Source: a virus
IMG/VR virus record: IMGVR_UViG_3300027859_000026
Coordinates: 1-52,264 of that record
DNA: 52,264 nt
Strand: one strand, 5' to 3'
Positions 1 through 41,856 of the stretch are shown one piece after another; position 1 is the first letter of the stretch, and every line of letters starts with the position of its first letter. The position numbers and the translations under genes are program-made. The notes under the pieces are model-generated. The model did no database searches and was not told the origin of the DNA. It worked only from the letters and a program-made list of their open reading frames with translations.

Positions 1-9
1 GAGCAATTG

Positions 10-348
10 TGGAGCCGGAGGGTTTCGAACCCTCGTCCAGTAAAGATTCATAGCAAGTCTTTTTACAGGTTTAGTGCAAGTTTTTCTAAACTTCCGAAAA
101 TAAATGGGTTTTAGAACTGTTAAGGATTCGTTCTCCGCATCACCATTATTGCATACATACCCTAATACTTCCTTTTACATCTTAATAACCTACAAGTACG
201 CGACTCGGTTACACGATGTGCTTAGCATCTAATCTAATTAGGCTGCCATAGCATACTCAGCGTTTCCAGCTAAGGTTTTTGATGTTGGTCATCACCCATT
301 ACCTGAACTTGATACTTCAACAGAACTGTCAAAGCCAAAGTCGGCCCC
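10..348 (-). ncRNA. ssrA: Phage-encoded tmRNA
   Basis: This is a transfer-messenger RNA, which rescues stalled ribosomes by acting as an alanyl-tRNA and then as a short mRNA for a degradation tag. The 5' end GGGGCCG (348-342) pairs over 7 bp with CGGCUCC (17-11). The third pair is the G3-U70 wobble that marks alanine acceptors, and the discriminator base is A. The T arm is GAGGG-UUCGAAA-CCCUC. The 5' region CUUUGGCUUUGACAG matches the tmRNA D-loop consensus. The tag frame (267-238) follows a UAGCU element and reads GNAEYAMAA, then UAA. At about 339 nt it is near the usual length. CCA is not encoded. It is the last gene on the left and follows a small gene ending at 390. The identification is direct from sequence; the exact 5' and 3' ends are inferred from pairing. 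Confidence 0.95.
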
Positions 349-757: not shown

Positions 758-994
758 TTAATCGTTAGGTCCTTCTGGTAAAATAGCATTTAAAAAATTG
801 AGGACATCGCCTTTATCAAAGCCTTCTTCGTACCAATCATCTAATAACTTGTCCATAGATGCAATAAATTTCTTATACTGAGTTCTGTCAACAATACCTT
901 CCATTCTAGTAACTAGTTCTCTGAAATAAGGAGTACTGACATCTTTTTGATATTCGTTTACGAAATCTTCGAATAGTTTTACATTATCTGACAT
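758..994 (-). CDS. Small protein with capsid-targeting-like N-terminus (78 aa)
   Basis: The family is not recognised. The N-terminus MSDNVKLFEDFVNEYQKD has the LFxDFhNE pattern shared by several proteins of this region. It resembles the T4 capsid-targeting sequence (T4 internal proteins begin MKTYQEF and are cut after a hxE site). Here VNE ends at residue 14. The remaining 64 residues are acidic and helical, ending LNAILPEGPND. A GATATATA promoter-like octamer sits 24 nt before the ATG, and a good terminator follows the stop, so it appears to be a single-gene transcription unit. It may be a small internal head protein; the function is inferred from the motif only. Confidence 0.75.
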   Translation of the reverse strand: MSDNVKLFEDFVNEYQKDVSTPYFRELVTRMEGIVDRTQYKKFIASMDKLLDDWYEEGFDKGDVLNFLNAILPEGPND

Positions 995-1018
995 ATTGAA
1001 TTGTATTTTTATTTATAG

Positions 1019-1026
1019 TATATATC
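1019..1026 (-). promoter_or_regulatory. GATATATA late-promoter-like octamer (gene at 994)
   Basis: GATATATA lies on the coding strand, 24 nt upstream of the ATG at 994. It is one of eight intergenic copies that all have the same orientation. The core-promoter (-10) role is inferred. Confidence 0.55.
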
Positions 1027-1049
1027 TGTATTTTGGAATAGAGTATTAA

Positions 1050-1515
1050 ACATTAAAAAAGAGAAGGATGATTTGGTAGGATTTGCTTGTTACCTACAAA
1101 ACAGTGTGTTGTATAATAATGATGACTTTAAGAGTCAAATGACTTTGACTTATTCTTATCTTTGCCTAGCTAAGGCTTAGACATCGAATAAAACGACTAT
1201 CATATCTTAAATGCGTTATCCCCAACATTAGGACTTTTCCGCCATTAAACTGGGTTTCGGTTTCCCTTACCAGTACATCATTTCAGAATAGCTTTTCTAT
1301 GAGCTTTTCTACTGAGAACCATCATTGAGGTCGTTATCCTCTGCTACCTTTCATTTAAAAGGCTAGTGTCCCATCGGACTGATGAATGTGCTTTATACCC
1401 TTCTGGACAGGTATTATTCAGCCACAAATCAACAACCTTCACCCGTCAGCTCCGGTTGCCTTCTCAATTCTCTTTCGAGAAAATATGTTTGTTCAATACT
1501 TCAAAGATCGTTGTT
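1050..1515 (-). ncRNA. Structured RNA of unknown class
   Basis: The 639-nt gap between CDS 758-994 and CDS 1634-3094 has no plausible gene. It holds a block clearly more GC-rich than the surrounding genome and dense in short perfect helices. On the minus strand these include TTCTC-GAAA-GAGAA (1481-1468), CAACC/GGTTG (1458-1433), ATACC/GGTAT (1414-1395), GAGG/CCTC (1341-1327), ACTGG/CCAGT (1274-1249), GCCT/AGGC (1176-1164) and AGTCAAA-GTCA-TTTGACT (1150-1133). It follows a terminator at 1583-1609, so it may have its own promoter. It has no tmRNA, RNase P, tRNA or clear group I intron architecture. It could belong to the large ornate RNA classes found in phages (GOLLD, ROOL) or be new. The ends are approximate. 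Confidence 0.6.
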
Positions 1516-1582
1516 ATTTTTTAATAACGATAGTTATATATGTTAGTTTAAAAAAGTTTCACATTTTTTTAAAGTTTTTTAC

Positions 1583-1609
1583 AAAAAAAATCCAGGATAT
1601 ACCTGGATT
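1583..1609 (-). terminator. Rho-independent terminator after the 486-aa gene
   Basis: AATCCAGG (1609-1602) pairs with CCTGGATT (1596-1589) around a 5-nt loop and is followed by a run of T residues to 1583. It begins 25 nt after the stop codon at 1634 and separates the cargo operon from the structured RNA. Confidence 0.85.
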
Positions 1610-1633
1610 CTCTTTCATAAAAATACTATTCTA

Positions 1634-3094
1634 TTATCCTAACTTCTCAAAATCTTTAGCTAGCTTTTTCAACATTCTTTCGTTATAGTATTCATCAAGT
1701 TTATCTAAAAAAGCATCATGAGAAAAATCATTAGCAGGTGTTACATACTCTGCCATGTATTTACCATGTGGAGAGTTTAAGAAACCAACTGCTTGTTTTT
1801 CTGTCATTCCTTTATCCATTAAAACATTAACAGCGCTTTGATAAGCTCTTTGACGGTCTTTAGCATTTAAGTCTGACATTTCTTTAAGAAATGCAACATA
1901 TCCTAAATTTTCTCTAGCATTAGATTCTTTAGCCTCGTGAACAGATTCTGCAAGTGCTTCAATGTCCCATTGAATTCTTTCTAATGGAGTTTCATCATAA
2001 GTTAAATTCTTTTTGACCCAATCAACAAGTCCCGGCTCTTGCTTAGCATTTTGAGCCATATCGTATCCATGTTCTGCACCACCCTGTGCTGCAACGCTTT
2101 CAATCCATTCATCATATTTCTTTTCGGTCCATCTTACCTTTTTCTTCTTCTTTGCATGTGGTCCTGCTCCTAAAGTTGACTTTATAGTATTATAGTGATC
2201 TGGGCCAGCAAATACGCCTTCTGCCCATTCTTGGTCTCTTTTATTTCCATTCCAATACTTAATCTTCTTTCTAAATTTTCTAAGTTGGTATTCTGCATCT
2301 TCTATTTTTTCATGATCTGTAACTCCTCCAAAACTTGAACCAAATTCTATCTTCATTCCTTCTAATCTATCAGGGTCCATTTCAAAATGCAAATCTTCAA
2401 TTTTAGCTTCATCAATAGATTCATCAAATCCGTAATCAACTTCCCATTCGAAAGGTGCATTGTTTATAGCATCTGAAAATATTTCATTCCATTCAACCTC
2501 GTCAAATTTATAGAAAGCTGCAATATCTGCTATTTTATCAAGTGCTTGTTCGGTTTTACGATTATCTTTAAGTTCTTTTGGAGATATTCCTGTAACATCT
2601 TTAAGATTTGCTATTATAAATTCAGCAACCTCTTTTTCAGATGGTCTAGACCCTAGTTTTTTTATAACTTTTGCAACTGTGTTATATTTACCAGGTTCTC
2701 CATATTCTTCGTTTAAGAATTGATTAAAATTTGTAAAAATCATTGCTTCGTTTTTATTTTTTTTAAGATCTGCTTCTCTCTTCTTCTTCTTTTTCTTATA
2801 CTCTTCTTCAGCATCTCCTCTTCCAGCAGGAACATCTCCACTTCCATCTGCTGCTCCATTAAAATTAGATGGGAAACCAACAGGTCCCATACCTCCAATA
2901 TTTCCTGGAGATAAGTTTTCTTCTAATGTGCCTCCTAAATGTTCTACCATTTCTTTTTTAAATTCAGATAATTCATCATCATTAAGTTTTGGATATACTT
3001 TAGACCTTAAATTCTTAATTAATTTACTAGCTTCTGAAAGACCTTTTCCTTCATTAACTAAACTTTCTTGTTGTGCTTTACTATTTGCTGGCAT
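1634..3094 (-). CDS. Multi-domain putative capsid cargo polyprotein (486 aa)
   Basis: No single family is recognised. The protein is a string of small charged domains separated by hxE sites like those cut by T4-type prohead protease: VNE15-G, LNE129-E, IDE229-A and VHE387-A. The third segment contains an aromatic FTNFNQFLNE motif (residues 120-129), like a capsid-targeting sequence but internal. A Gly/Pro-rich linker (about 64-92) and a lysine-rich stretch (100-112) precede it. The last segment (388-486) is a helical domain with NLGYVAFLKEMSDLNAKDR. It starts 15 nt after the stop of the 639-aa gene, with an A-rich leader and no Shine-Dalgarno, and ends before a strong terminator. I infer an internal head protein precursor; the roles of the modules are unknown. 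Confidence 0.8.
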   Translation of the reverse strand: MPANSKAQQESLVNEGKGLSEASKLIKNLRSKVYPKLNDDELSEFKKEMVEHLGGTLEENLSPGNIGGMGPVGFPSNFNGAADGSGDVPAGRGDAEEEYKKKKKKREADLKKNKNEAMIFTNFNQFLNEEYGEPGKYNTVAKVIKKLGSRPSEKEVAEFIIANLKDVTGISPKELKDNRKTEQALDKIADIAAFYKFDEVEWNEIFSDAINNAPFEWEVDYGFDESIDEAKIEDLHFEMDPDRLEGMKIEFGSSFGGVTDHEKIEDAEYQLRKFRKKIKYWNGNKRDQEWAEGVFAGPDHYNTIKSTLGAGPHAKKKKKVRWTEKKYDEWIESVAAQGGAEHGYDMAQNAKQEPGLVDWVKKNLTYDETPLERIQWDIEALAESVHEAKESNARENLGYVAFLKEMSDLNAKDRQRAYQSAVNVLMDKGMTEKQAVGFLNSPHGKYMAEYVTPANDFSHDAFLDKLDEYYNERMLKKLAKDFEKLG

Positions 3095-3109
3095 TTTTAT
3101 AATTATTTT

Positions 3110-5029
3110 TTACCAAGCAAGGTTTTTGTTTTTAAGTTTCTTTAAACGGTCTTTAATATCCTTAGCGTACTTTAAAGCTTCTTTTTCATTGTACTTAACT
3201 TCCCATTGCTCTTCTCGTACGTCAGCTCCTTCTTTTTCAAGTCTCGCTTTTGCATTTTCTGCGTCATTAGTATATCTAGCCCATCTTTCATAATCAGACA
3301 TTAAATTATTGGTAAAATTAGAAAGGTCGTTTATTTTAAAATCTCTTCCATCTTTACCAGTTCCCATAATAATTTGGTTGTACTTGTCTTTCTTTTTATT
3401 TTTAATACCGGCTTTCATAATATCTGCTATTTCTTCGATAGCTTTTACTACTTCTTTATCTACGTCTAAAGTACTAGACCTTTGTGTAAGAATTTCTTTA
3501 TATCTTGCCATGTTTGCATTTTTAAATTCTTTATCATCTTTAAATGCAATTGCTCCTTCTTTAGCTTGGCTTCTTTGCATTATTTTATTTCCTGTAGTTT
3601 CAAGAGCTTCTGGGTTAACAACAAATGCAGCATCTGCAATTGATATTACTCTTGAAAGACTTCCAAGTCCGGATGCATCCCATCCAGAATATGATTTATT
3701 TGGTCCAATATCAGAAACGCTTGAATGCCTTTTAGAATTTGGGTCAGTTGTTAAAGAATACTCGCTACCATCACGTCTATTACTCCATCTACTTTTTACA
3801 TAAAATACCTTTTTGCCTTTAGCAAGTGCTAAAAGAGAGTTTGCTGGAAATTCAGTGTTATAGTGTCCGGAAGCATACGGATTTTCTTTTGCTTGAGTTG
3901 TATAATAAAATACGTAACCATTTTGTTTTGGTCCATCTTTAGGATCGACATCTATTATTTGGTGGTCTTCTACTTTGTCTAATGCTATTTTTGTTTGGCC
4001 ATAAATTCCTTTTAAAAGCGATTTAGGGCTCTTTTTCATACTTAAAAGATTTCTAAGTTTAGAGCTTTTAAGCGCTTCGTTAATTTCTACAGATTCTTCT
4101 ATGTATCTTTCGTTTACAAAGCTTGAAAAGTCTGTGTATATTGTTGATTCTTTTATAAGGGTTGATTCGAATGTTTTCATCCATTTACCTAATACTTTTC
4201 TTGCTTCGCTTTTACTTAAACCAAATTCTTTTTGTAAATAAGGGGCTGCTCCCCACATGTTAGTTGCTCCAGAATCTCTTAGTGCATTTAGAAAATCAAA
4301 GTATGGTTTATCTTCAATTGATTCGTTAACTACTGATTCGTCCATTTTATCACCGTTAGGTTTTTTACCAGTCTTAACAGCATAAGAAACTACTTCTTTA
4401 GTATTAAATGCAGGTTTTGGAGCTCTACCTCCGTTATATTCTTTATCCCATTCTGCGATAGATTTATCATCTTCTAAATCAAATTCACCGTTCTTATAGG
4501 CTTCGATTGCGTTCATAGTAAATCGAGAGTCCCAATTTTTCGGTGCTCTAGCCTCATTTACAGATTCATACATATTAGAAGTTGCTTCATCTGGTAAATC
4601 TTCCCAATCAGATTCTACATATTCTAGAGCGTCATCTGAATCAGAAAAAGCCTGTAATAACCATTCTTCTCTTTGGTCATCATCTGCTTTATCCCAATGT
4701 TTTTTTGTAATTTCTTTTCTACCTTCATTTACGGATTGAATAGTATTTGCTATTTTGTTTCCATATCTTGAAAGAGTTATAGTGTCTTCTTCTACCTTAA
4801 AAAATCTTTCATTTCTTTTTGCCCATTTACTTGGACTTTTAGAATGCTTTGAAACTATCTCGTTAAACTCAGAAAGGGTCAATTTCTTGTCCCTTAATGC
4901 TTCAATAATAGTATTTCTAATGTTTGCGTTTTGTCTTACGTTTTTTTCTGGATAGTTTTCTGTATATTTTCTTTTGAGAACTATTTTAGATTCATCTAAA
5001 GACTCTAAGTACTTTTCAAAATTTTGCAT
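3110..5029 (-). CDS. Beads-on-a-string putative capsid cargo polyprotein (639 aa)
   Basis: It begins MQNFEKYLES, an aromatic N-terminus similar to the capsid-targeting peptide of T4 internal proteins. Five sites of the prohead-protease type follow: VNE102-G, VNE159-A, VNE236-S, VNE307-R and INE318-A. They bound small modules: 103-159 (acidic, with ITKKHWDKADDDQREEWLL), 160-236 (RAPKNWDSRF and GGRAPKPAFNTKEVVSYA), 237-295 (YFDFLNALRDSGATNMWGAA, helical, like a helix-turn-helix) and a C-terminal domain of about 320 residues. FSSFVNE at 301-307 repeats the targeting motif. A GATATATA octamer lies 30 nt upstream. It leads into the 486-aa gene 15 nt later. I infer a precursor packaged and cut in the prohead; the enzymatic role of the large C-terminal domain is not recognised. 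Confidence 0.8.
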   Translation of the reverse strand: MQNFEKYLESLDESKIVLKRKYTENYPEKNVRQNANIRNTIIEALRDKKLTLSEFNEIVSKHSKSPSKWAKRNERFFKVEEDTITLSRYGNKIANTIQSVNEGRKEITKKHWDKADDDQREEWLLQAFSDSDDALEYVESDWEDLPDEATSNMYESVNEARAPKNWDSRFTMNAIEAYKNGEFDLEDDKSIAEWDKEYNGGRAPKPAFNTKEVVSYAVKTGKKPNGDKMDESVVNESIEDKPYFDFLNALRDSGATNMWGAAPYLQKEFGLSKSEARKVLGKWMKTFESTLIKESTIYTDFSSFVNERYIEESVEINEALKSSKLRNLLSMKKSPKSLLKGIYGQTKIALDKVEDHQIIDVDPKDGPKQNGYVFYYTTQAKENPYASGHYNTEFPANSLLALAKGKKVFYVKSRWSNRRDGSEYSLTTDPNSKRHSSVSDIGPNKSYSGWDASGLGSLSRVISIADAAFVVNPEALETTGNKIMQRSQAKEGAIAFKDDKEFKNANMARYKEILTQRSSTLDVDKEVVKAIEEIADIMKAGIKNKKKDKYNQIIMGTGKDGRDFKINDLSNFTNNLMSDYERWARYTNDAENAKARLEKEGADVREEQWEVKYNEKEALKYAKDIKDRLKKLKNKNLAW

Positions 5030-5059
5030 TTTTATATTATTATTTTTTATCTGTTTCTT

Positions 5060-5067
5060 TATATATC
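5060..5067 (-). promoter_or_regulatory. GATATATA late-promoter-like octamer (gene at 5029)
   Basis: The octamer is on the coding strand, 30 nt before the ATG at 5029, in the 42-nt gap after the stop at 5072. The -10 role is inferred from the recurrent position. Confidence 0.55.
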
Positions 5068-5071
5068 TATA

Positions 5072-6076
5072 TTAAATTTTTACCCAAACTTTAATTCCAT
5101 TAGGAGCTTGTGTTATAGAACTTAATCCCATATTTTTAGGATTATTTTTTAAGTTTTTTAAATACACGACATCATTGAAACCGTCATTTTTATCTTTTAC
5201 TAAAAAAACAAACTGTTCTTTTTTACTAGACCAATCTTTTATAGCCATGGCTTCTATTTCAGAAAAAGTCATTATCTTATTGCTATTAATAGATTGTCTA
5301 AATTGTTTTTCTAAAGATTTTCTTCCTTTTTCTGTATTGATATCTCCTATAAGTTCTTCGGAAGGAGTGTACACATTTAACTCTCCTTCTGCACCTAACT
5401 CTACTTTAAAATCTTTTTTAAACTGGGGTGGTAACTCTGTAATATCTTTTGCTACAGCAACGAATTTAGAAGCTTCACCGTCTAGCATTTTTGAAGCGAT
5501 TAAATCACCACTAGTAGTTCCAGCTTTTAAATCTTTATGGGAGTATTTTAATAAATTATATAATTTTCTTAATTCATCCCAAACTCGCGATTTAGCACCA
5601 TTCCATTTTTTACCAGTTCTCCAACCTACTAGTTTTCCACTAGTTTGTCTAGTAACTTCTTTAAGTTCAGCAGTGTCAATAATTTTGCCACTTTCGTTAA
5701 ATAAATTTAAGTCAACATCAGAACTTCCTCCTCCTATTGCCAAATTTTCAACAGCGTATCCCATCATTATTTCTCCTTTACCAATACCATCTACTTTTAA
5801 ATTAAATAATACGTTTGCACTAGCTTGATCTGCACTTAAATATTTTTTAATTTTATTAATAGAATTAGGACCTAGGTCGTCGAGTTTAAGTCTCATTCCA
5901 AAAGGAGCTTTTCCACCAAAATATGTATTGTTTAATCTATCAAAAAGCTCTTGTTTTTCTTTTAATATTGTTGATTGTGCTAAAGAAAGAGCATCTTTTG
6001 TTGATATATTCCCTTTTCTTTCAAAGATTTGGTTAACCTTATTTAATTCTGATTCAAATTGCGTTCTAATACTCAT
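5072..6076 (-). CDS. PD-(D/E)XK-nuclease-like protein
   Basis: The protein has about 334 residues from the chosen start. Numbered from the longer in-frame start at 6097, residues 117-146 contain the core VENLAIGGGSSDVDLNLF, then AELKEV (D127, D129, E144, K146). This D-x(n)-ExK arrangement after a conserved E and a Gly-rich turn is the signature of the PD-(D/E)XK nuclease fold. The fold call is inference from motif spacing. The ATG at 6076 follows the upstream stop by one base (TAA-A-ATG) and has an A-rich leader; the ATG at 6097 would overlap the previous gene by 20 nt. It sits between the nucleotidyltransferase fusion and the polyprotein genes, so it may belong to the same cargo set, although no clear hxE site with a targeting motif is seen at its start. 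Confidence 0.75.
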   Translation of the reverse strand: MSIRTQFESELNKVNQIFERKGNISTKDALSLAQSTILKEKQELFDRLNNTYFGGKAPFGMRLKLDDLGPNSINKIKKYLSADQASANVLFNLKVDGIGKGEIMMGYAVENLAIGGGSSDVDLNLFNESGKIIDTAELKEVTRQTSGKLVGWRTGKKWNGAKSRVWDELRKLYNLLKYSHKDLKAGTTSGDLIASKMLDGEASKFVAVAKDITELPPQFKKDFKVELGAEGELNVYTPSEELIGDINTEKGRKSLEKQFRQSINSNKIMTFSEIEAMAIKDWSSKKEQFVFLVKDKNDGFNDVVYLKNLKNNPKNMGLSSITQAPNGIKVWVKI

Positions 6077-6077
6077 T

Positions 6078-7907
6078 TTACTTTGTTTTAAATTCATTAA
6101 ATGTTAACACGGATTCTTTCTGTTGAACTTTATTTAGTTCTAATTGTAATTCATAGAACATAGAATGAATTGAAGGTGGTGTTAACTGCTTAAACTCGTC
6201 TTCATTCTCGTTTATTATTGCTTCTCTAACTTTAGTAGCACTAATATTTTCTTCGCCTCTTTGTATTTCAAAAAGACTAAATTCTTCTAGAACATTTAAC
6301 TGTTCTCTATATTTTACATTGTCAACTTGATATCCATAACCTTTCATTCTGTCGGTTCCGGAACCCCAAAGAACTGGTTCGTATTTAGGTCTAAGTTGAT
6401 TAAATATTTTGTCTATTCCTGCAGTTTCTACAACAATCACATCTTCTATTTTCTGGTCTACTTTTGCCATTTCTAAAAGTTGCATTTGAGTTTCAACTGT
6501 AAAAGGCCTTCTTTGTGCATCGTCTTTTTTCTTAGTTTTTGATTTTACTAAAACAACAACAGTGTTTAAACCATTCTGTTCATATAAATTTTCTAAAACT
6601 TTAGTATGTCCTAATGTAAATGGTTGAAATCTTCCAACAAACATATTTACTTTTTTAGCACCTCTTTCAATATAATCTACTTTAAGTCCTTCATTTATGG
6701 GACTTTTTTGTGATTTTAAAGTATCATTGATTTTAAAAGTTTGAAAGTCCATTACTTCAGATTCTTCTACTTCTCCAAGTACCTGTGCTTTTATTGATTT
6801 AACTATTTTATTTAGAGATTCTAATATATCTCCAGTTAATAATGCAGTTTCTTTATCTCTTAATTTTCTAAAAGTTCCTAAAGTTATTTTTAATAGTTCT
6901 GCAACTTGTTTTGAATTGTTAATATTTTTAATTGTTTCTTGATTGTTTAAAAAAATAGGATTTAATTCAAACTCTTTTTCTTTAGCAAAATCTGCACTTT
7001 TAAAATCTATTCCTAAAAATGATTTTTCATGCTCGTTTAAAAAAGAGTTAAAAGCGGCTGACATTAGTTCTAAATATCTTTCATCCGCACTTTTACTTTC
7101 TAATTTTATTTTATTAAAACCAAAATCATTAAAATACTCTATTAGACGAAGTACTGTTATCTGATATGCATCTGAAGAAGACCTTTCTTCTTTATTATTT
7201 TCTTTTAAAGGGCTTTGAATCTTAAAGTTTTTAATGTTGTTTCCTTCTTGAAAAGATATTATAAGCCCATCAATTTCTTTTGTAAGGTCATTATGTAGCT
7301 TTGAACTATGAATAGACTCATTAAATACTTTAAATATTCTATGTGTAAAACTAAAATCACTAAAATACTCACGAGACTCTTCTAAATCAAGAGACAATAT
7401 ATTTATTAATTTTTCAATTTGATATTCGGCTAAATTCCCTTTAAATATTAAAGTAGGTTCATCTACTTCTAGTATTTTAGCCCATTTATTTAATATTTTA
7501 GGGTCTTTAATTACTTTTTTTACTCTACCATCTTCTTGTATTACTTGAATATGCGTTAAAATTAAATTATTTTTAGGAACTGTATCGTATTCTACGTTAA
7601 CTGTTTTATTAGAAGTCATATAGTCAAAACCAAACTTCCAGTCACTTGGCATCTGTTCTAACTTTTCTAAAAGAAGAGCTTTAAAATGCATGATAGCTTT
7701 TTCATAATAGGATACTATTGTCCTATCTACTTTATCAATAGATTCATTTTTACCAGATTTAAAAAACTCTACATTGCCTTGTTTTCTATTGACATAGAAA
7801 CTACTTGCTTGAATTTTTTCAGTAACTACACACTTTTGTGACAAAAGATGTTTTACTTCTTCTAATTCATTATTATTAAAATAATCTTTTAAGTCTTTTA
7901 GTGCCAT
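6078..7907 (-). CDS. Ligase-like nucleotidyltransferase fused to NMN-adenylyltransferase-like domain
   Basis: The C-terminal part (about 417-600) is a cytidylyltransferase/NMNAT-type domain. It has GRFQPFTLGH at 425-434 (the HxGH class motif in TxGH form) and ISATKVR at 555-561 (the ISSTxxR signature), suited to transfer AMP to a mononucleotide such as NMN. The N-terminal 240 residues look like a DNA/RNA-ligase nucleotidyltransferase: TEKIQASSF with candidate lysine 31, FGFDYM, EIDGLIISF (211-219) and KNFKIQSP (226-233). The classic KxDG is degraded to KIQA. Between them SPINEG (INE406-G) is a predicted prohead-protease site exactly at the domain joint, near an FQTFKIND motif. Known marine T4-like phages carry NAD-related adenylyltransferases. 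Function in NAD synthesis or RNA repair is inference. Confidence 0.85.
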   Translation of the reverse strand: MALKDLKDYFNNNELEEVKHLLSQKCVVTEKIQASSFYVNRKQGNVEFFKSGKNESIDKVDRTIVSYYEKAIMHFKALLLEKLEQMPSDWKFGFDYMTSNKTVNVEYDTVPKNNLILTHIQVIQEDGRVKKVIKDPKILNKWAKILEVDEPTLIFKGNLAEYQIEKLINILSLDLEESREYFSDFSFTHRIFKVFNESIHSSKLHNDLTKEIDGLIISFQEGNNIKNFKIQSPLKENNKEERSSSDAYQITVLRLIEYFNDFGFNKIKLESKSADERYLELMSAAFNSFLNEHEKSFLGIDFKSADFAKEKEFELNPIFLNNQETIKNINNSKQVAELLKITLGTFRKLRDKETALLTGDILESLNKIVKSIKAQVLGEVEESEVMDFQTFKINDTLKSQKSPINEGLKVDYIERGAKKVNMFVGRFQPFTLGHTKVLENLYEQNGLNTVVVLVKSKTKKKDDAQRRPFTVETQMQLLEMAKVDQKIEDVIVVETAGIDKIFNQLRPKYEPVLWGSGTDRMKGYGYQVDNVKYREQLNVLEEFSLFEIQRGEENISATKVREAIINENEDEFKQLTPPSIHSMFYELQLELNKVQQKESVLTFNEFKTK

Positions 7908-7936
7908 ATTATTTATATGATTAAAATCCGTTTTGT

Positions 7937-8329
7937 TTATTTGCCGTTGTGGAGAGCCTCTGCTTTTTTAGCAGCTGCTTTAACACTTTGCATCGCTCCG
8001 GAAAGAGATTTTTTATTTAACATTCCCACTATTTTATTACCATTATCTCCAAAAGCCTCAAGTTCTCCCTTACCTGTTATGCTAATTCCATAAGAAGGTC
8101 CGTAAAAACCACCGTCTTCGACGCTAACCATTGTAAGAAGAGCTGAGTATGTGTTAAATTTCAGTTTTTTATTTCCTTTATCTACAGTATAAGAACCTTG
8201 AAACTTATCTTCTTTTTGCTTAGCTGCTAATTTTAGTAGAGAAGAAGCTGCTTTAGCATTTATTTCATCAGCTTGAACTTCTTGTACATTTTCTGATACG
8301 TAATCTTCGTATAATTTTACCTTTTTCAT
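7937..8329 (-). CDS. Small putative internal head protein (130 aa)
   Basis: The N-terminus MKKVKLYEDYVSENVQEV carries the aromatic targeting-like motif with VSE ending at residue 13. What follows is a compact domain with alternating hydrophobic pattern (YTVDKGNKKLKF, GPSYGISITGKGELEAFGD) that looks like a small beta sheet, then an alanine/lysine-rich helix. The family is not recognised. It lies 14 nt downstream of the 218-aa gene and 29 nt before the nucleotidyltransferase fusion, in one run of closely spaced genes. An internal capsid protein is inferred from the N-terminus. Confidence 0.75.
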   Translation of the reverse strand: MKKVKLYEDYVSENVQEVQADEINAKAASSLLKLAAKQKEDKFQGSYTVDKGNKKLKFNTYSALLTMVSVEDGGFYGPSYGISITGKGELEAFGDNGNKIVGMLNKKSLSGAMQSVKAAAKKAEALHNGK

Positions 8330-8343
8330 TTTTTATTTTGTTT

Positions 8344-9000
8344 TTATTGATTTATCATTATTCCATTTAACTGATCTGCGAAGCCGTTAGAAAAACCTAA
8401 TTTACGGTTTGATAAACCTATAGTAGTATAATTTGTTCCATAGCTAAAATCAAAAGTTATACCGCCATCATTGCTATTATATTCTTCAAATACAAAGAAA
8501 AGTAAATACAATTCTTGCATTATTTTTTCTGTTGTCTTACTATCAATACCGCTACCAATAGTTACTGCTATTATATAACTATCGCTTCCATTATTGAAAT
8601 TTACTCTTGGCTGAATATCTCCACTAACGGTCGATCTCATTGTTCCAGACCAACCAGCCGCTGCAGGTGTACTAGACTTAGCAACCTCTTCAGGTTTATA
8701 TTTTGCAACCACCTTTCCTATTTCTTTAGCTAATGCTCTTGCATAATTAGGATTGAAAAGGTCATAGTCACCTCTTTTTGGTGAATGCATTCTAGCGAAA
8801 TGTCCAGCATGTTTTTCATAGTGAATATTTCCAGGTTTCATTTTTTCAAGTTTTGATATTATCATGTCATACCATCTTTCCCCAGCTTCTGCCTGATATT
8901 TAGCGTATTCTAAAGATGCTTCTATTTTATCAGCAATTCCTTTTTTACCAAATTGAACTCCTTCGTTTATGAATTCGTTAAATGATTCGTATAATTCCAT
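8344..9000 (-). CDS. Putative internal head protein with capsid-targeting N-terminus (218 aa)
   Basis: MELYESFNEFINEGVQF is one of the best matches here to a T4-type capsid-targeting sequence, with INE13-G fitting the (I/L)xE-(A/G) prohead-protease consensus. The body has a helical section (IADKIEASLEYAKYQ), a Pro/His-containing region (HYEKHAGHFARMHSPK), a low-complexity linker near 128-135 and a C-terminal beta-rich section (GGITFDFSYGTNYTTIGL). No family is recognised. Its ATG overlaps the stop of the upstream 421-aa gene (TAATG), implying translational coupling to that ligase-like enzyme. Confidence 0.78.
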   Translation of the reverse strand: MELYESFNEFINEGVQFGKKGIADKIEASLEYAKYQAEAGERWYDMIISKLEKMKPGNIHYEKHAGHFARMHSPKRGDYDLFNPNYARALAKEIGKVVAKYKPEEVAKSSTPAAAGWSGTMRSTVSGDIQPRVNFNNGSDSYIIAVTIGSGIDSKTTEKIMQELYLLFFVFEEYNSNDGGITFDFSYGTNYTTIGLSNRKLGFSNGFADQLNGIMINQ

Positions 9001-10265
9001 TATCTTCCGTATTTTATTATTCCCATTAGCTGATTTATTGCAGCAAACGTACCTGTTAATTTCATAGTTTTTCCTTTGTACTTAAATACAATTCCTTCTG
9101 TAGGAACTATACTTTCAATACCCCCAATAGTTTCTAATCTATTAAGTTCACTTTCTATTTTTTGGACCTGTGTAAGGTCTCCATTTAGTTTTATATCTTT
9201 AGCAGCTTTTCTAATCTTATTATGTAGATTTTCTTTTTCTAAATCAGGGTTTGCTGCTACAAAATTACTTGCATTTTTTAAAACATCAGCACCTAACTCT
9301 AAAAACAAATTCTCAAATGGCAATATGTTCTGCTTGTATTTTTTATGTCTATCTTTATCAAAGTCTTTAATTTTAGATAAAACATCAGGTTCTACCATTT
9401 TTTTAATGGCTACCATATTAAGAGTTTGTTTGTCTTTATATGCCCATCTTAAAAATAAACCTTCTTTTATTTTTGAATCTAAATCTTTAAATTCTTTTTC
9501 TATTTCTTTACTCCACCATGCCTCGTGATATTCTTTTACTTCATCACCGTCTTTTAAGCCAAACTCATCTCTTAATTTGTCTAACTTTTTAAAATAATAG
9601 TCTCTTCTAGCCTCAAAGTCAATATCTTTTTGAAGTTTAATAATTTGAGGAGGTATAATTGTAAAAGTCTTTTGCACATCTAATTCGACACTTCTAATAA
9701 TTTTAGCCAATTTTCCACCAGCTTTACCGTCTTCTGATATAATCTTTCCAGTTTTATCTACTTCTACCATTCCATGGAATTGAATTAAGTCTCTATCATA
9801 ATTAATTACATTAGGGTTTTTAGTGTAAATGATTTCCATATTTAAGAAGTTTGTTCCTTCTTTAAAATCTGAAGTATCTTTAAGGTTAGATAGTGAAGCA
9901 TCTAAATCTTTAGCTGCTAAAACAAAAGTTTCTTCTACTAAAGGAGATGGATGTCCCTTAAACATATTAATAATACCTGCTAAATTCATTGGAGTTATTA
10001 ATGTTCCTTTATTTCTAGCAAAAAGAACTTGACCATTTTTAACAGTTGCAAATAAATTTTGACCGTCTGTTTTTTCAGTTGGTCCATCTTCAAATGTCAA
10101 ACTACCTTGTAAACCGTCCTCTACAATTCCTTTAAAGTCTTTAAATGTTAAGTCATGTAAATCAAAAGGGTGGGCCATGTGGCCTGCCGCTCCACCTTCT
10201 AAAATCAATTGATTTTCGACTATTTGATATTTTTCAACTAAGAATTGAGTATACGTCTTAAGCAT
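9000..10265 (-). CDS. KxDG ligase-type nucleotidyltransferase with capsid-targeting leader (421 aa)
   Basis: This appears to be a member of the ATP-dependent DNA/RNA ligase superfamily. Motif I is TEKTDGQNLF, with the nucleotidyl-acceptor lysine at K65; RNKG (84-87) fits motif Ia; FLNMEIIY (140-147) fits motif III; TEGIVF (389-394) fits motif IV; GKTMKLTG (398-405) fits motif V. It should form an AMP-lysine intermediate; the substrate is unknown. The first 23 residues start MLKTYTQFLVE and end LILE, followed by GG, a capsid-targeting leader with a prohead-protease-type site that would release the enzyme. It has its own promoter-like TATATTTG upstream and is coupled to the 218-aa gene. A capsid-delivered ligase is inference. 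Confidence 0.85.
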   Translation of the reverse strand: MLKTYTQFLVEKYQIVENQLILEGGAAGHMAHPFDLHDLTFKDFKGIVEDGLQGSLTFEDGPTEKTDGQNLFATVKNGQVLFARNKGTLITPMNLAGIINMFKGHPSPLVEETFVLAAKDLDASLSNLKDTSDFKEGTNFLNMEIIYTKNPNVINYDRDLIQFHGMVEVDKTGKIISEDGKAGGKLAKIIRSVELDVQKTFTIIPPQIIKLQKDIDFEARRDYYFKKLDKLRDEFGLKDGDEVKEYHEAWWSKEIEKEFKDLDSKIKEGLFLRWAYKDKQTLNMVAIKKMVEPDVLSKIKDFDKDRHKKYKQNILPFENLFLELGADVLKNASNFVAANPDLEKENLHNKIRKAAKDIKLNGDLTQVQKIESELNRLETIGGIESIVPTEGIVFKYKGKTMKLTGTFAAINQLMGIIKYGR

Positions 10266-10285
10266 TAGTACATTATATGTTTATA

Positions 10286-10293
10286 CAAATATA
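10286..10293 (-). promoter_or_regulatory. Bacteroidetes-type -7 promoter element, module copy C
   Basis: TATATTTG on the coding strand matches TAnnTTTG, the -7 box of Bacteroidetes sigma-ABfr promoters. It lies 20 nt before the ATG at 10265 and 2 nt after the terminator T-run. A TTTG occurs about 16 nt upstream, slightly close for a -33 box. The module (CCAGATTTTTTT, then TTATATTT) resembles copies at 651-715 and 17024-17094. Confidence 0.5.
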
Positions 10294-10295
10294 AT

Positions 10296-10327
10296 AAAAA
10301 AAATCAACCCAAAAAAATCTGGGCTGA
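10296..10327 (-). terminator. Rho-independent terminator after the 462-aa gene
   Basis: TCAGCCC (10327-10321) pairs with GGGTTGA (10310-10304, one G-T wobble), followed by eight T residues. It begins 18 nt after the stop codon at 10345. Confidence 0.85.
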
Positions 10328-10344
10328 ATTTTTTTAAATTATTT

Positions 10345-11733
10345 TTAACCTACTGAAGACTTTAGCATTCCAACTGCTGCACCATAATCTCCATCTGATT
10401 TCTTTAGCATCCCTTCTGCTGCTTCTTTTGCTTTTTCTTCGTCGTATTTATCTCCAAATGCTTTTTTGTAAATAGCCTTAGCCATTTCCATAAAGTCTTC
10501 ATCTGATTTTACTTCTGCTTCATTTACTTCCTTTGAAGTAACCTTATAAGTTTTACCATCAAATTCAAAAGTTTCTTCTCCAGCTTCTCTTGCTTTATTA
10601 ACAGCAGCTACAAATCTTCTACCTTCGTAGATTTCCATAACCTTGTCTCTATCGACTCTTATTTGCTCTCCTTCAAATTGTGCATTGAATGCATTTAACA
10701 TTGATTGTGCAGTTGAGTCATCTTTTAGCATTGTTGATATGTAAAGAGCACATCCTTCTACAATTGCTTGGCCTCCCCAATCTGCAGCGCTTGCAATATC
10801 TCCTACGTAATTAAATAATATTTCTTTAATTCTTCCGCTACTTATTTTAGCATGATATCCTCCAAGTCCTGGTAATTTAATTTCAATACCTTTAATATTA
10901 GCGCCTCTTATTGCTTTTAAGACTGCTGGTTTTTCTGTATGGAAGTTAGCATCTGTCATTGCTTCTCCGCAAATGTATTTAACACACCCTAGCATTCCTT
11001 CTTTTCCAAGCTGGCCTAAATCTACTAACTTTTTAGTAAAAAGTCTATTAAGTTGAGTAACTACTTTTTTAGCAGCTCTTTTTCTCTCTACTTGAATTGC
11101 TTCGTTAATTTCTATTTCTTCAGTAATTTCTGATTCAAATTTATGCCCGACGATTTTAAGACCGGCAACTCCAGGAAAGTATTCTCCTTGGTCTGTTTGA
11201 ATTCTTCCGCTTGAACTAGACTTATGTGGTTCTGTAAAACCTTTGACAGTAATTGCGTCTCCTCTAAAGTCTTTAGTCTTGTATGGTAATTTAACAATCT
11301 TTCCAGTTTTTTCATCCATTAACTGTGCTGCTTCTTCTACTTTATAAGTTTTGCCATCAACTTCGAATTCTTCTTCTCCGTCTTCTTTAGCTTTTTTAAC
11401 AGCAGCTCCAAATTTGTTACCTTCTACTTGATATTTCTTGCCATCAACTTCGAATTCTTCTTCTCCGTCTTCTTTAGCTTTTTTAACAGCAGCTCCAAAT
11501 TTGTTACCCTCAGTTTCTAAATCTTCGTTATTGTTAGATAATGTTGTAAAAAATTCGGTTCTTTTTTCTTCATCTAGTTCAGCAACTGAAGATACATTAT
11601 ATTTTGATAATAGTTCAGTAAATCTCTGTGCTTCAACTTGTCTATTTACAGTAGCAGCCCATTTCTCTTTATCTTCAATAATTCTTTTTCTAGTTTGAGA
11701 AAAACTAGCAAATGTTTCTAATTTTCTTTCCAT
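10345..11733 (-). CDS. Repeat-containing putative capsid cargo/core polyprotein (462 aa)
   Basis: The protein contains a 29-residue unit, NKFGAAVKKAKEDGEEEF followed by VDGKKYQV, twice in tandem (75-103 and 104-132) and a third diverged copy near 371-399 (RRFVAAVNKAREAGEETFEF). Prohead-protease-type sites occur at INE211-A and VNE405-A. The latter releases a 57-residue helical C-terminal domain ending DGDYGAAVGMLKSSVG. The central domain (212-370) is unrecognised, with GLGGYHAKISSGRIKEILFN. The N-terminus LETFASF weakly resembles the targeting motif. A GATATATA octamer lies 27 nt upstream, and a strong terminator follows. It may be a prohead core or internal protein. Confidence 0.8.
   Translation of the reverse strand: MERKLETFASFSQTRKRIIEDKEKWAATVNRQVEAQRFTELLSKYNVSSVAELDEEKRTEFFTTLSNNNEDLETEGNKFGAAVKKAKEDGEEEFEVDGKKYQVEGNKFGAAVKKAKEDGEEEFEVDGKTYKVEEAAQLMDEKTGKIVKLPYKTKDFRGDAITVKGFTEPHKSSSSGRIQTDQGEYFPGVAGLKIVGHKFESEITEEIEINEAIQVERKRAAKKVVTQLNRLFTKKLVDLGQLGKEGMLGCVKYICGEAMTDANFHTEKPAVLKAIRGANIKGIEIKLPGLGGYHAKISSGRIKEILFNYVGDIASAADWGGQAIVEGCALYISTMLKDDSTAQSMLNAFNAQFEGEQIRVDRDKVMEIYEGRRFVAAVNKAREAGEETFEFDGKTYKVTSKEVNEAEVKSDEDFMEMAKAIYKKAFGDKYDEEKAKEAAEGMLKKSDGDYGAAVGMLKSSVG
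11338..11511 (-). repeat. Tandem 87-bp coding repeat (two copies)
   Basis: Two adjacent 87-bp units in the 462-aa gene, 11425-11511 and 11338-11424, are nearly identical in DNA as well as protein. They differ only at a few bases near the ends, which indicates a recent duplication. A third, diverged unit lies further along the gene. Confidence 0.9.
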
Positions 11734-16231: not shown

Positions 16232-16364
16232 TGGGGAGGGACGGAATCGAACTGTCATCTACTATTCTACACCATTTTCCAAATAAGTGATCTGCTTATT
16301 CTTCATGTCTGATCAGGACTAGGTTCAATAAGAATAGTCGCCTTAACCATTTGGCTACCTCCCC
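16232..16364 (-). tRNA. tRNA-like RNA with greatly enlarged anticodon arm
   Basis: The acceptor stem is perfect: GGGGAGG (16364-16358) pairs with CCTCCCC, then A as discriminator. The D arm reads TAGCCAAATGGTTAAGGC (GCC/GGC stem, GG in the loop). The T arm is GACAG-TTCGATT-CCGTC, with one A-C mismatch. The anticodon region, however, is about 60 nt too long. ACTATTCT pairs with AGAATAGT (8 bp) and closes a loop of roughly 60 nt that contains AATAAG-CAGATCA-CTTATT. No normal 7-nt loop with U33 is available. It could be a tRNA with a short intron, a degenerate tRNA or an anticodon-less tRNA-like RNA. CCA is not encoded. Confidence 0.7.
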
Positions 16365-17827: not shown

Positions 17828-18196
17828 TTATAGTCTTTTACCTATAACAGCTCCTAAAGCGGTACCTACAAGTCTAGAAGTTAATAAATCATAAAGTACT
17901 CCTTTATTTATACCTAATACTTTAGCTATCATTTTACCAAGAGATTTACCTAATGCAAAACCAGTTAGACCACCTATAATAGAACCAAAAAATCCTTCAT
18001 TAGTAACTTCATTATTAAATCTTTCTAAATCAATTTCTCCATTTTCATTTCTGTATTCATTTAGAAAAGCATCAACTGCTTCGTCTACTTTAGATTCTAA
18101 TTCAGGAGTCCATTCCTGCTGAAGACCTTCTGTTAAAAGGCTCATTTCTTCTTTTGTAACTTTATTTTCTTCTAAGTATTTTACAAATGTTTTCAT
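17828..18196 (-). CDS. Glycine-zipper protein with capsid-targeting N-terminus (122 aa)
   Basis: MKTFVKYLEE is the closest match in the window to the T4 internal-protein leader MKTYQEF, and LLTEG (LTE23-G) fits a prohead-protease site. Acidic residues 25-65 are followed by a hydrophobic glycine-zipper region, FFGSIIGGLTGFALGKSLG and VGTALGAVIGKRL, able to form two membrane-spanning helices. I infer a capsid-internal protein that could insert into a membrane during DNA entry. A holin is an alternative. It sits 15 nt after the tail-tube-like gene and directly before the resolvase. Confidence 0.8.
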   Translation of the reverse strand: MKTFVKYLEENKVTKEEMSLLTEGLQQEWTPELESKVDEAVDAFLNEYRNENGEIDLERFNNEVTNEGFFGSIIGGLTGFALGKSLGKMIAKVLGINKGVLYDLLTSRLVGTALGAVIGKRL

Positions 18197-40542: not shown

Positions 40543-41856
40543 TTAATTTATTTTTTTACTATTTATTATTTCAGTTTTATCAAATTTTGCAGACTTACTT
40601 ATCTTCCCATTTCTAAATATACCACCGATCATTCTGCCTTTAAATATACTATCCCATTGATAAACATAACAATTTGTAGCCTCACACTCTTTACTTACAT
40701 AACTAGATTCTATCTTTGACGATTTAATTAAGCTATTTTGATAAAAATTACATCTTTTTAATTCTGAATTTTCTATTTCTGTTCTAAAAAAATCACAAAA
40801 AGAAAATGTTCCAGTAAGTCGGCAATCTATAAAATCATAATTATCTAAATCAAAGCAATTTTCTAAAGTACCATCTTTAATTTGAACCCTACCTATATCA
40901 CTATCATAATTTATAAATCCTTTAGAAATACTACCATGGCTAATTAACCTAACTACACTAAATTTTATTTTATCCCAATATAAAGATATTATTTTATCTG
41001 AAGTTTTTAAGTCAACTGATAATTTTAATTCCGGATAGTATTTATTTATTTTTTTAAAATCTTTAAGAATTGCAGTATACGGCTCATTTTTATTTAATAT
41101 CCTCTTTAATTCTAAAAGATTTAATTGAGTATAATTTTTATTCGTGGAAGAATGCCATAATTGAAATAAAAACCTATCTAATAAATATAAAACATTTGAA
41201 GTCTTTTTTTGATAATCTTTACCTCCAATATACCTAAATTCTAAATAACCGAGTGATAATTTTTCAAAGTTTACTCCATAGTATTTTTCTTTTGGAAAAT
41301 CAAAAGATTTAGGATTTATTTGCTGACCATTAAAATAACTAGCTTCTATTTTAGGTACGCACCACTTAATAGATTTAGCATATACACTATCTTTTCTATT
41401 TGGAAACATTTTATACACTTCGTCTTCATTAAAATCTAATATAAATTTTAAAGGGTCCATTCTTTGAATAAACTCAGGCTTATTAACTTTTTTAGAATCA
41501 AAACTTACGTTTAAATGAATTGATGATTTTTCAGTTGTATATCCATTCTTATCTATCCAAGCTAAAGTATCAATAATCATTTTTCTGGCATTACCGTATG
41601 AGATAGCGCCTGTAACTAATTCTACAAGTCCTTTACCACCTGACATATCAGGTTCTAACTTAAATTCTTTATCAGTAGGTTTAAAATCACTGTGAGCTTT
41701 ATCCTCAATTCTAATTTTTTTATTTAAAAGAGAAGAAAGAGATTCACGTGTTTTTTCAAGAGGTAGGTTGGAGTAAAATTCAAACTCTACTCCAACCAAT
41801 CCCATTTCTAGAATGTCTTCTTTTTGAGTGTCATTAACAATTTGATACGTGAGCAT
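40543..41856 (-). CDS. Amidoligase-like enzyme with pentapeptide-like C-terminus (437 aa)
   Basis: Residues 20-240 carry the signatures of the COOH-NH2 ligase (Amidoligase_2) fold. These are GVEFEFY (22-28), LEPDMSGGKGLVELVTG (67-83, the xPDxS...GxElV pattern), SSIHLNVSF with H114, and LEFRYIGG. Such enzymes form amide bonds using ATP. From about 335 on, the sequence turns into short stacked repeats (CDFFRTEIENSELKRCNFYQ and following), pentapeptide-repeat or beta-helix style. It starts at a GATATATA-preceded ATG and is one base before the 280-aa gene. The substrate could be a virion or host protein or cell-wall peptide; this is not determinable here. Confidence 0.75.
   Translation of the reverse strand: MLTYQIVNDTQKEDILEMGLVGVEFEFYSNLPLEKTRESLSSLLNKKIRIEDKAHSDFKPTDKEFKLEPDMSGGKGLVELVTGAISYGNARKMIIDTLAWIDKNGYTTEKSSIHLNVSFDSKKVNKPEFIQRMDPLKFILDFNEDEVYKMFPNRKDSVYAKSIKWCVPKIEASYFNGQQINPKSFDFPKEKYYGVNFEKLSLGYLEFRYIGGKDYQKKTSNVLYLLDRFLFQLWHSSTNKNYTQLNLLELKRILNKNEPYTAILKDFKKINKYYPELKLSVDLKTSDKIISLYWDKIKFSVVRLISHGSISKGFINYDSDIGRVQIKDGTLENCFDLDNYDFIDCRLTGTFSFCDFFRTEIENSELKRCNFYQNSLIKSSKIESSYVSKECEATNCYVYQWDSIFKGRMIGGIFRNGKISKSAKFDKTEIINSKKIN

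What the first reader, a model, noticed from the sequence alone, without database searches (positions are those of the whole stretch)
758..11733. Cluster of proteins with capsid-targeting-like motifs and prohead-protease sites
Seen: the N-termini at 758-994 (LFEDFVNE), 7937-8329 (LYEDYVSE), 8344-9000 (YESFNEFINEG) and 9000-10265 (TYTQFLVE, then ILEG), and internal segments at 1634-3094 (FNQFLNE) and 3110-5029 (FSSFVNE), share an aromatic FxxFhxE pattern. The gene at 17828-18196 (MKTFVKYLEE, LTEG) has it too. Known: T4 internal proteins carry an N-terminal capsid-targeting sequence starting MKTYQEF, and the gp21 protease cuts after (I/L)xE before A or G. Inference: this phage packs a large set of proteins, some enzymatic, into its head and may inject them with the DNA. 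I know of no description of such a set for Bacteroidetes T4-like phages.
Basis: partly seen in the sequence, partly recalled or inferred. Interest (0 to 1): 0.88.

Follow-up and report, generated by a model that had tools for sequence, protein, structure and literature searches.

The report
Phage head-packaging tags on cargo proteins
This virus of bacteria, and many relatives, put the same short removable address label on dozens of otherwise unrelated proteins, including known blockers of bacterial immunity, apparently to pre-load them into the virus head for delivery with the DNA; phage T4 does this with a handful of proteins, here it looks like a large interchangeable arsenal.

Summary
Five of 49 called window genes start with the FxxFhxE motif (0.3 expected). 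In four long relatives, 8-14 genes per genome carry it, most in the form MKHIKLFEQFINE|. Thirty-three unrelated families share this leader, and conservation collapses right after the Glu. Searched blind, T4 gives ipII, ipIII and gp61.1, and the T4 gp23 cleavage site (FGSFLTE|A) is the same motif. Relatives encode an S77 prohead protease fused to a scaffold that repeats [FY]xx[FYH][ILV][AS]E. Cargo domains swap between stand-alone tagged genes and internal modules of multidomain proteins, with borders at hxE: 13 of 20 families within 3 residues (10 exact), random 14%, P = 2e-7. Tagged cargo includes the anti-Thoeris protein Tad3 (4 of 4 copies tagged), Acb1-like 2H phosphoesterases, NMN adenylyltransferase-like and RNA-ligase-like enzymes. 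I conclude: a T4-type capsid-targeting and prohead-processing system, greatly expanded and modular, probably delivering anti-defence proteins at injection. Packaging, cleavage and injection are inferred; no virion proteomics exists and the window (52 kb fragment) lacks the protease gene. I found no description of it in the literature held.

The parts
758..994 (-). 78-aa protein with N-terminal tag MSDNVKLFEDFVNE|; motif at 953-973
   Evidence: no homologue in the loci fetched
1634..3094 (-). 486-aa multidomain cargo protein: head resembling the MCP N-terminus (residues 3-87), Lys-rich stretch, internal tag FNQFLNE (2708-2728), then two or more cargo domains that occur as separate genes elsewhere
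2834..2911 (-). NIGGMG..GSGD segment shared with the MCP N-terminal arm of relatives
   Evidence: (BLASTP two-sequence E = 3e-8)
3110..5029 (-). 639-aa multidomain cargo protein: internal tag FSSFVNE (4109-4129) and INE|A (4076-4084) directly before a C-terminal domain that is a stand-alone tagged gene in L034 and L146
   Evidence: AlphaFold: fragment residues 1-21 disordered, order starts at the site
5072..6097 (-). 341-aa operon member without the full tag; DVDLNL...AELK resembles a nuclease motif (by eye)
6078..7907 (-). 609-aa protein with a C-terminal NMN adenylyltransferase-like domain; invariant Glu406 in a PhxE[AG] site (6690-6698) in the linker before it; conserved C-terminal TFxxF
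   Evidence: C-terminal domain is a stand-alone tagged gene in L199
7937..8329 (-). 130-aa tagged protein MKKVKLYEDYVSE| (motif 8291-8311); its body is an internal module (residues 276-366) of the 3110-5029 homologue in relative G001
8344..9000 (-). 218-aa tagged protein MELYESFNEFINE|G (motif 8962-8982)
   Evidence: homologues include MKHVKLFESFINE| in L197
9000..10265 (-). 421-aa tagged enzyme MLKTYTQFLVE| (motif 10233-10253), variable spacer, second site LILE|GG (10197-10208), invariant EKTDG; RNA-ligase-like
10345..11733 (-). 462-aa operon member with FxxF leader (METFASF type; SFEQFATE in relatives) and repeated NKFGAAVKKAKEDGEEEFEVDGK modules
17828..18196 (-). 122-aa tagged protein MKTFVKYLEE (motif 18167-18187), conserved TNE|G (17996-18004) before a glycine-zipper segment
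   Evidence: 47 sequences

Best explanation
The motif is a capsid-targeting and cleavage tag of the T4 type. During head assembly the leader (M-K-h-[IV]-K-[LT]-[FY]-x-x-F-[ILV]-[NTS]-E) binds the prohead core, whose scaffold carries the same [FY]xx[FYH]hxE element in repeated 14-residue units. The S77 prohead protease, made as an N-terminal fusion to that scaffold, then cuts after the Glu, removing the leader and separating the modules of multidomain cargo proteins. The mature cargo is left in the head and is ejected into the host with the DNA. Cargo is a variable set that includes anti-defence proteins (Tad3, Acb1-like) and RNA-ligase-like and NAD-related enzymes, so the phage can disarm host immunity before its own genes are expressed. 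Shown: tag, its enrichment, the sharp border, co-occurrence with the fused protease-scaffold, modular borders, cargo identity. Inferred: binding to the core, cleavage, packaging, ejection, timing.
For: N-terminal tags exceed chance 6-14 fold in four long relatives fetched without selection for the tag (G001 14 vs 1.8; G002 8 vs 1.3; G005 9 vs 0.6; G008 11 vs 0.9) and 16-fold in the window (5 vs 0.31). Thirty-three unrelated families share it; information content is 3.7 bits at Glu13, 1.2 at residue 14, 0.44 at 15. T4 control: the blind pattern hits only ipII, ipIII and gp61.1; gp23 59-65 is FGSFLTE|A66. Long-form tag: 15, 11, 10 and 5 genes in four relatives, none in phiKZ, SPO1, crAss001, phage G, P-SSM2, KVP40 or S-PM2; the single T4 hit has an in-frame stop; reversed pattern 0 everywhere. 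S77 protease in relatives, in 578-831 aa ORFs, with 4-7 [FY]xx[FYH][ILV][AS]E copies in the fusions examined. Cargo-module borders at hxE, P = 2.4e-7. Tad3: 4 of 4 copies tagged, PDB 9b7d E = 6e-34. Acb1-like proteins mostly tagged, two invariant HxT motifs. T4 Ip1-3 share only this leader, are injected and block GmrSD (PMC12373910).
Against: No virion proteomics or cultured member of this clade was found. The protease is not in the window. PTm1, pT24 and Lak-A1, which have related capsid proteins, show no tag by the patterns used. Some members of the conserved operon lack a full N-terminal tag (5072-6097, 6078-7907, 10345-11733). P1' is often K, N or R, not only A or G. 16 of 34 tag-bearing contigs lack a detected S77, though most are fragments. 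None of the window's own cargo matches a known anti-defence family.
Confidence: 0.85

Rival explanations
1. The tagged proteins are scaffold or core components consumed or degraded in the prohead, as T4 gp67, gp68 and gp22 are, not delivered cargo.
For: The tag-like element repeats in the scaffold part of the protease fusion, and one tagged gene (G001 85253-85597, acidic C-terminus) sits directly before the protease like T4 gp67/68.
Against: Most tagged bodies are diverse, sporadic and partly enzymatic (Tad3, GNAT, ATP-grasp, kinase, 2H phosphoesterase) and lie in accessory islands of up to 8 adjacent tagged genes. Core parts would be conserved.
Confidence: 0.1
2. The leader is an expression or recombination cassette (translation start context, paralogue expansion) with no targeting role.
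For: The leaders are similar also at DNA level, and tagged genes cluster in islands.
Against: Codons vary while residues are kept (one search matches); no shared upstream element was found; conservation ends exactly at the Glu; the same element marks internal module borders, where a start context is irrelevant; T4 homologues of the leader are proven targeting sequences (PMC3012670).
Confidence: 0.03
3. The leader addresses proteins to another place in the infected cell, such as a membrane or a replication compartment.
For: It is a short aromatic, possibly amphipathic segment with Lys residues (by inspection).
Against: It matches the T4 capsid-targeting sequence and the gp23 cleavage site, is absent from the nucleus-forming phage phiKZ, and co-occurs with the S77 protease-scaffold fusion.
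Confidence: 0.02

Closest known systems
T4 internal proteins IPI, IPII, IPIII and Alt with the capsid-targeting sequence, processed by gp21
   Same: Leader of the form MK..[FY]xxFhxE|; unrelated bodies; S77 protease; accessory loci; injected anti-restriction roles in T4 (PMC12373910, PMC3012670)
   Different: T4 has a few such genes; relatives here have about 8-15. Leader usually three residues longer (MKHIKLF...). Internal tags or hxE sites separate modules of multidomain proteins. Cargo includes anti-Thoeris and anti-CBASS-like proteins. Protease and scaffold are one polypeptide.
SPN3US and phiKZ ejection proteins with long propeptides
   Same: Many head proteins cut by a prohead protease and ejected (PMC5694885); phiKZ injects Tad1 (PMC13282480)
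   Different: Those propeptides are mostly over 100 residues without one shared short leader; phiKZ has no match to the tag pattern.
Polyvalent proteins (Iyer et al. 2017, PMC5512222), including P1 DdrB
   Same: Multidomain phage proteins predicted to be packaged and delivered; GNAT and ADP-ribosyltransferase domains
   Different: Processing there is attributed to built-in peptidase domains; here modules are bordered by prohead-protease-like sites and swap with stand-alone tagged genes.
Tenacibaculum phage PTm1 'prohead core scaffolding protein and protease'
   Same: Protease and scaffold annotated as one gene next to the MCP
   Different: No cargo tag found in PTm1 with the two patterns used.

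Membership tests
T4-type capsid-targeted internal proteins | Short shared N-terminal leader on otherwise unrelated proteins | tested here: met
T4-type capsid-targeted internal proteins | Leader ends in a hxE cleavage site like that of gp21 substrates | tested here: met
   hxE at the border; same motif at the T4 gp23 Glu65|Ala66 site
T4-type capsid-targeted internal proteins | Genome encodes an S77 prohead protease | tested here: met
   met in relatives; not found in the 52 kb window fragment itself
T4-type capsid-targeted internal proteins | Protein found in the virion with the leader removed | not testable with these tools
   needs mass spectrometry
T4-type capsid-targeted internal proteins | Injected into the host with DNA | not testable with these tools
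   inferred from T4 (PMC12373910) and cargo type
Polyvalent proteins | Multidomain protein carrying its own peptidase domain | tested here: not met
   no peptidase domain found by Pfam in the window multidomain proteins
NMN adenylyltransferase (6078-7907 C-terminus) | Cytidylyltransferase-like domain with GRFQPxTLGH and ISATxVR motifs | tested here: met
   PF01467 E = 6.5e-14; PDB 2qjo and 1f9a; activity not tested
RNA ligase (9000-10265) | KxDG nucleotidyltransferase motif and ligase fold | tested here: inconclusive
   invariant EKTDG; the five top Foldseek hits are all RNA ligases, but E = 0.12-0.62 and TM-scores are low
Acb1 anti-CBASS nuclease (relatives) | 2H phosphoesterase with two HxT motifs | tested here: inconclusive
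   both HxT invariant, but PF13563 scores as well as Acb1 PF23474
Tad3 anti-Thoeris (relatives) | Homology to solved Tad3 | tested here: met
   PDB 9b7d E = 6.2e-34; PF25185 E = 8e-19 to 5e-22

The most novel reading that the evidence does not exclude
A widespread clade of large T4-like phages runs a general-purpose protein-delivery platform. One removable address tag, also usable as an internal cutting site, lets any protein or chain of domains be loaded into the head, so the virion carries a swappable arsenal of anti-immunity proteins that acts before phage gene expression. The tag then becomes a way to find unknown anti-defence genes by sequence alone.
Probability: 0.65. Interest if true: 0.9.

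Novelty: new variant of a known kind. Interest (0 to 1): 0.82.

Why it matters
If true, the tag is a genome-readable label for proteins that phages deliver at infection. It would turn roughly 170 mostly unannotated families into candidates for anti-defence or host-takeover function. It would explain how large phages act against fast cyclic-nucleotide defences such as CBASS and Thoeris, since the inhibitors arrive with the DNA. And it would extend T4 internal proteins from a few genes to a modular system spread across environmental phages.

Tried and rejected
Shared promoter or leader DNA upstream of tagged genes: nothing convincing. PADLOC on 130 tagged families: no hit. Sequence search of PDB for 9000-10265: none usable. 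Foldseek on the 3110-5029 C-terminal domain: no significant fold. Requiring the full FxxFhxE motif at internal module borders: only 28 of 426 sites, although above background; the minimal hxE site is what is kept. Pfam and PHROGs for most window cargo: no usable match. One weak PHROG tape-measure hit to 8344-9000 (E = 8e-5) was not pursued. Literature: no paper in the library describes such tags outside T4 and the giant-phage propeptides.

Full report
WHAT THE WINDOW IS. The window is a 52,264-base virus fragment (G000) of a T4-like phage: tail tube, baseplate hub, UvsW-type helicase, primase, ssDNA-binding protein and RuvC-like genes match PHROGs, and a tmRNA lies at the left end. Nine adjacent genes (758-11733) and one separate gene (17828-18196), all on the minus strand, are the subject.

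OBSERVATION. Tagged N-termini number 5 of 49 called genes, against 0.31 expected from internal positions and 0.13 from shuffled N-termini.

RELATIVES. The 6078-7907 protein has at least 98 relatives in IMG/VR, the best 80 kept, and 9000-10265 has 60 hits in the loci fetched. Four long relatives (149-212 kb) were gene-called with a simple ORF caller and hold 14, 8, 9 and 11 tagged genes, each far above chance. In all, 512 tagged genes fell into 172 single-linkage families of bodies; this total is inflated by the scan, so the rates quoted come from the genomes not selected by the tag. For 33 families from loci not selected by the tag, the consensus is MKHIKLFEQFINE and the information content drops from 3.7 bits at Glu13 to 1.2 and 0.44 at the next two residues: a detachable leader.

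T4 AS CONTROL. The short pattern, searched blind over T4, hits exactly three genes: ipII, ipIII and 61.1. T4 gp23 residues 59-65 read FGSFLTE followed by Ala66, which is the known gp21 cleavage site (established knowledge; sequence). The motif therefore unites targeting leader and protease site. The long form gives 15, 11, 10 and 5 genes in four relatives (one further hit in G008 and the single T4 hit contain in-frame stops) and none in phiKZ, SPO1, crAss001, phage G, P-SSM2, KVP40 or S-PM2; the reversed pattern gives none anywhere. With the short form P-SSM2 has 2 matches, KVP40 1 and phage G 1, the last equalled by its reversed control. A 462 kb phage has 9 tagged genes and a 735 kb phage has 4.

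PROTEASE, SCAFFOLD AND CAPSID. The S77 protease is in 17 of 27 relatives and 18 of 34 tag-bearing contigs (10 of 11 of at least 140 kb), in ORFs of 578-831 aa, against 220 aa in Mel-JY01. The fusions read in full are an N-terminal protease followed by a scaffold carrying [FY]xx[FYH][ILV][AS]E at 14-residue spacing, 4-7 copies in eight examined and about 12 tandem copies in the 735 kb phage. PTm1 annotates such a fusion already. T4-like phages are common among large contigs, so co-occurrence alone is supportive, not decisive. The MCPs of four relatives carry hNE/hND sites near their N-terminus. The 1634-3094 protein and its homologues share the MCP N-terminal segment NxGGMG..GSGD (BLASTP E = 3e-8), which suggests a second head-associated element.

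MODULARITY. Bodies of stand-alone tagged genes reappear inside larger proteins: the window gene 7937-8329 corresponds to residues 276-366 of the 3110-5029 homologue in G001; the NMNAT-like domain of 6078-7907 is a tagged gene in L199; the C-terminal domain of 3110-5029 is a tagged gene in L034 and L146; a domain of 1634-3094 is a tagged gene in L197 and L251. Over 20 cargo families, after removing cases that could be start-codon errors, an [ILVM]xE lies within 3 residues of the border in 13, exactly at the border in 10, against 14% at random positions in the same proteins, P = 2.4e-7. In alignments the border Glu is invariant: Glu406 of 6078-7907 in a variable linker, Glu21|Ala22 at the start of the 3110-5029 C-terminal domain, Glu11 and Glu23 flanking a variable spacer in 9000-10265. 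The AlphaFold models have low confidence before these sites.

CARGO. Of 130 tagged representatives only a minority match Pfam: Tad3, Acb1, NMNAT-like, zeta-toxin/AAA_33 kinase, GNAT, ATP-grasp, PAP2 and others. All four Tad3 genes in 46 records carry the tag; identity is secure (PDB 9b7d). The Acb1-like proteins are mostly tagged and keep both HxT motifs, though a general 2H family scores equally. These genes sit in islands rich in tagged genes, so the tag rate there is higher than genome-wide and 4 of 4 must be read with that in mind. In Mel-JY01 a gene between protease and MCP starts MYEYVEYILE and ends in what reads by eye as an ADP-ribosyltransferase, like T4 Alt.

MECHANISM. Best supported: the leader binds the prohead core, the S77 protease cuts after Glu, mature cargo stays in the head and enters the host with DNA, where part of it counters defence. 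T4 precedent: Ip1-3 share only the leader, are injected, and inhibit distinct GmrSD enzymes (PMC12373910); phiKZ injects Tad1 (PMC13282480). Targeting and cleavage here are inferred from sequence; injection and timing are inferred from precedent.

VERDICT. The finding is confirmed and its interpretation supported. It is a new variant of the T4 internal-protein system: more cargo, modular multidomain cargo, fused protease-scaffold, and recognisable anti-defence proteins among the cargo.

Noticed in passing
window 7-348 (-): Phage-encoded tmRNA with tag peptide GNAEYAMAA (ARAGORN, Rfam RF00023).
   Followed up: no
window 16232-16364 (-): tRNA match with about 67 nucleotides between the anticodon-stem halves, missed by ARAGORN: possible intron-bearing tRNA.
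   Followed up: partly
L109 about 11548-11600 and the same place before the MCP in G002, G005 and G008: Conserved 5' leader of the major capsid gene, TCGACGA..GGTGACAGAAGCAGAA..CC..GTCGA, looks like a hairpin with an invariant loop; no Rfam match.
   Followed up: partly
L298 1366-1530 (T4 gene 61.1): T4 gp61.1 (54 aa) begins MKTFKEFIKE, the internal-protein leader; it may be an unrecognised packaged protein.
   Followed up: partly
L297 3914-6337: Protease-scaffold fusion of a 735 kb phage with about 12 tandem 14-residue YxEYIAE repeats.
   Followed up: no
window 17828-18196: Conserved TNE|G site before a glycine-zipper segment in 47 homologues: cleavage would release a roughly 55-residue hydrophobic peptide, perhaps membrane-active at ejection.
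   Followed up: partly
L144 22429-23595 (Mel-JY01): Alt-like ADP-ribosyltransferase-looking gene with a tag-like N-terminus between protease and capsid genes (identified by eye).
   Followed up: no
L164 5517-14600: Island with 14 tagged genes by a relaxed motif, seven of them consecutive.
   Followed up: partly
window 40543-41856: Protein with an N-terminus resembling amidoligases and a C-terminus with pentapeptide-like repeats (by eye).
   Followed up: no
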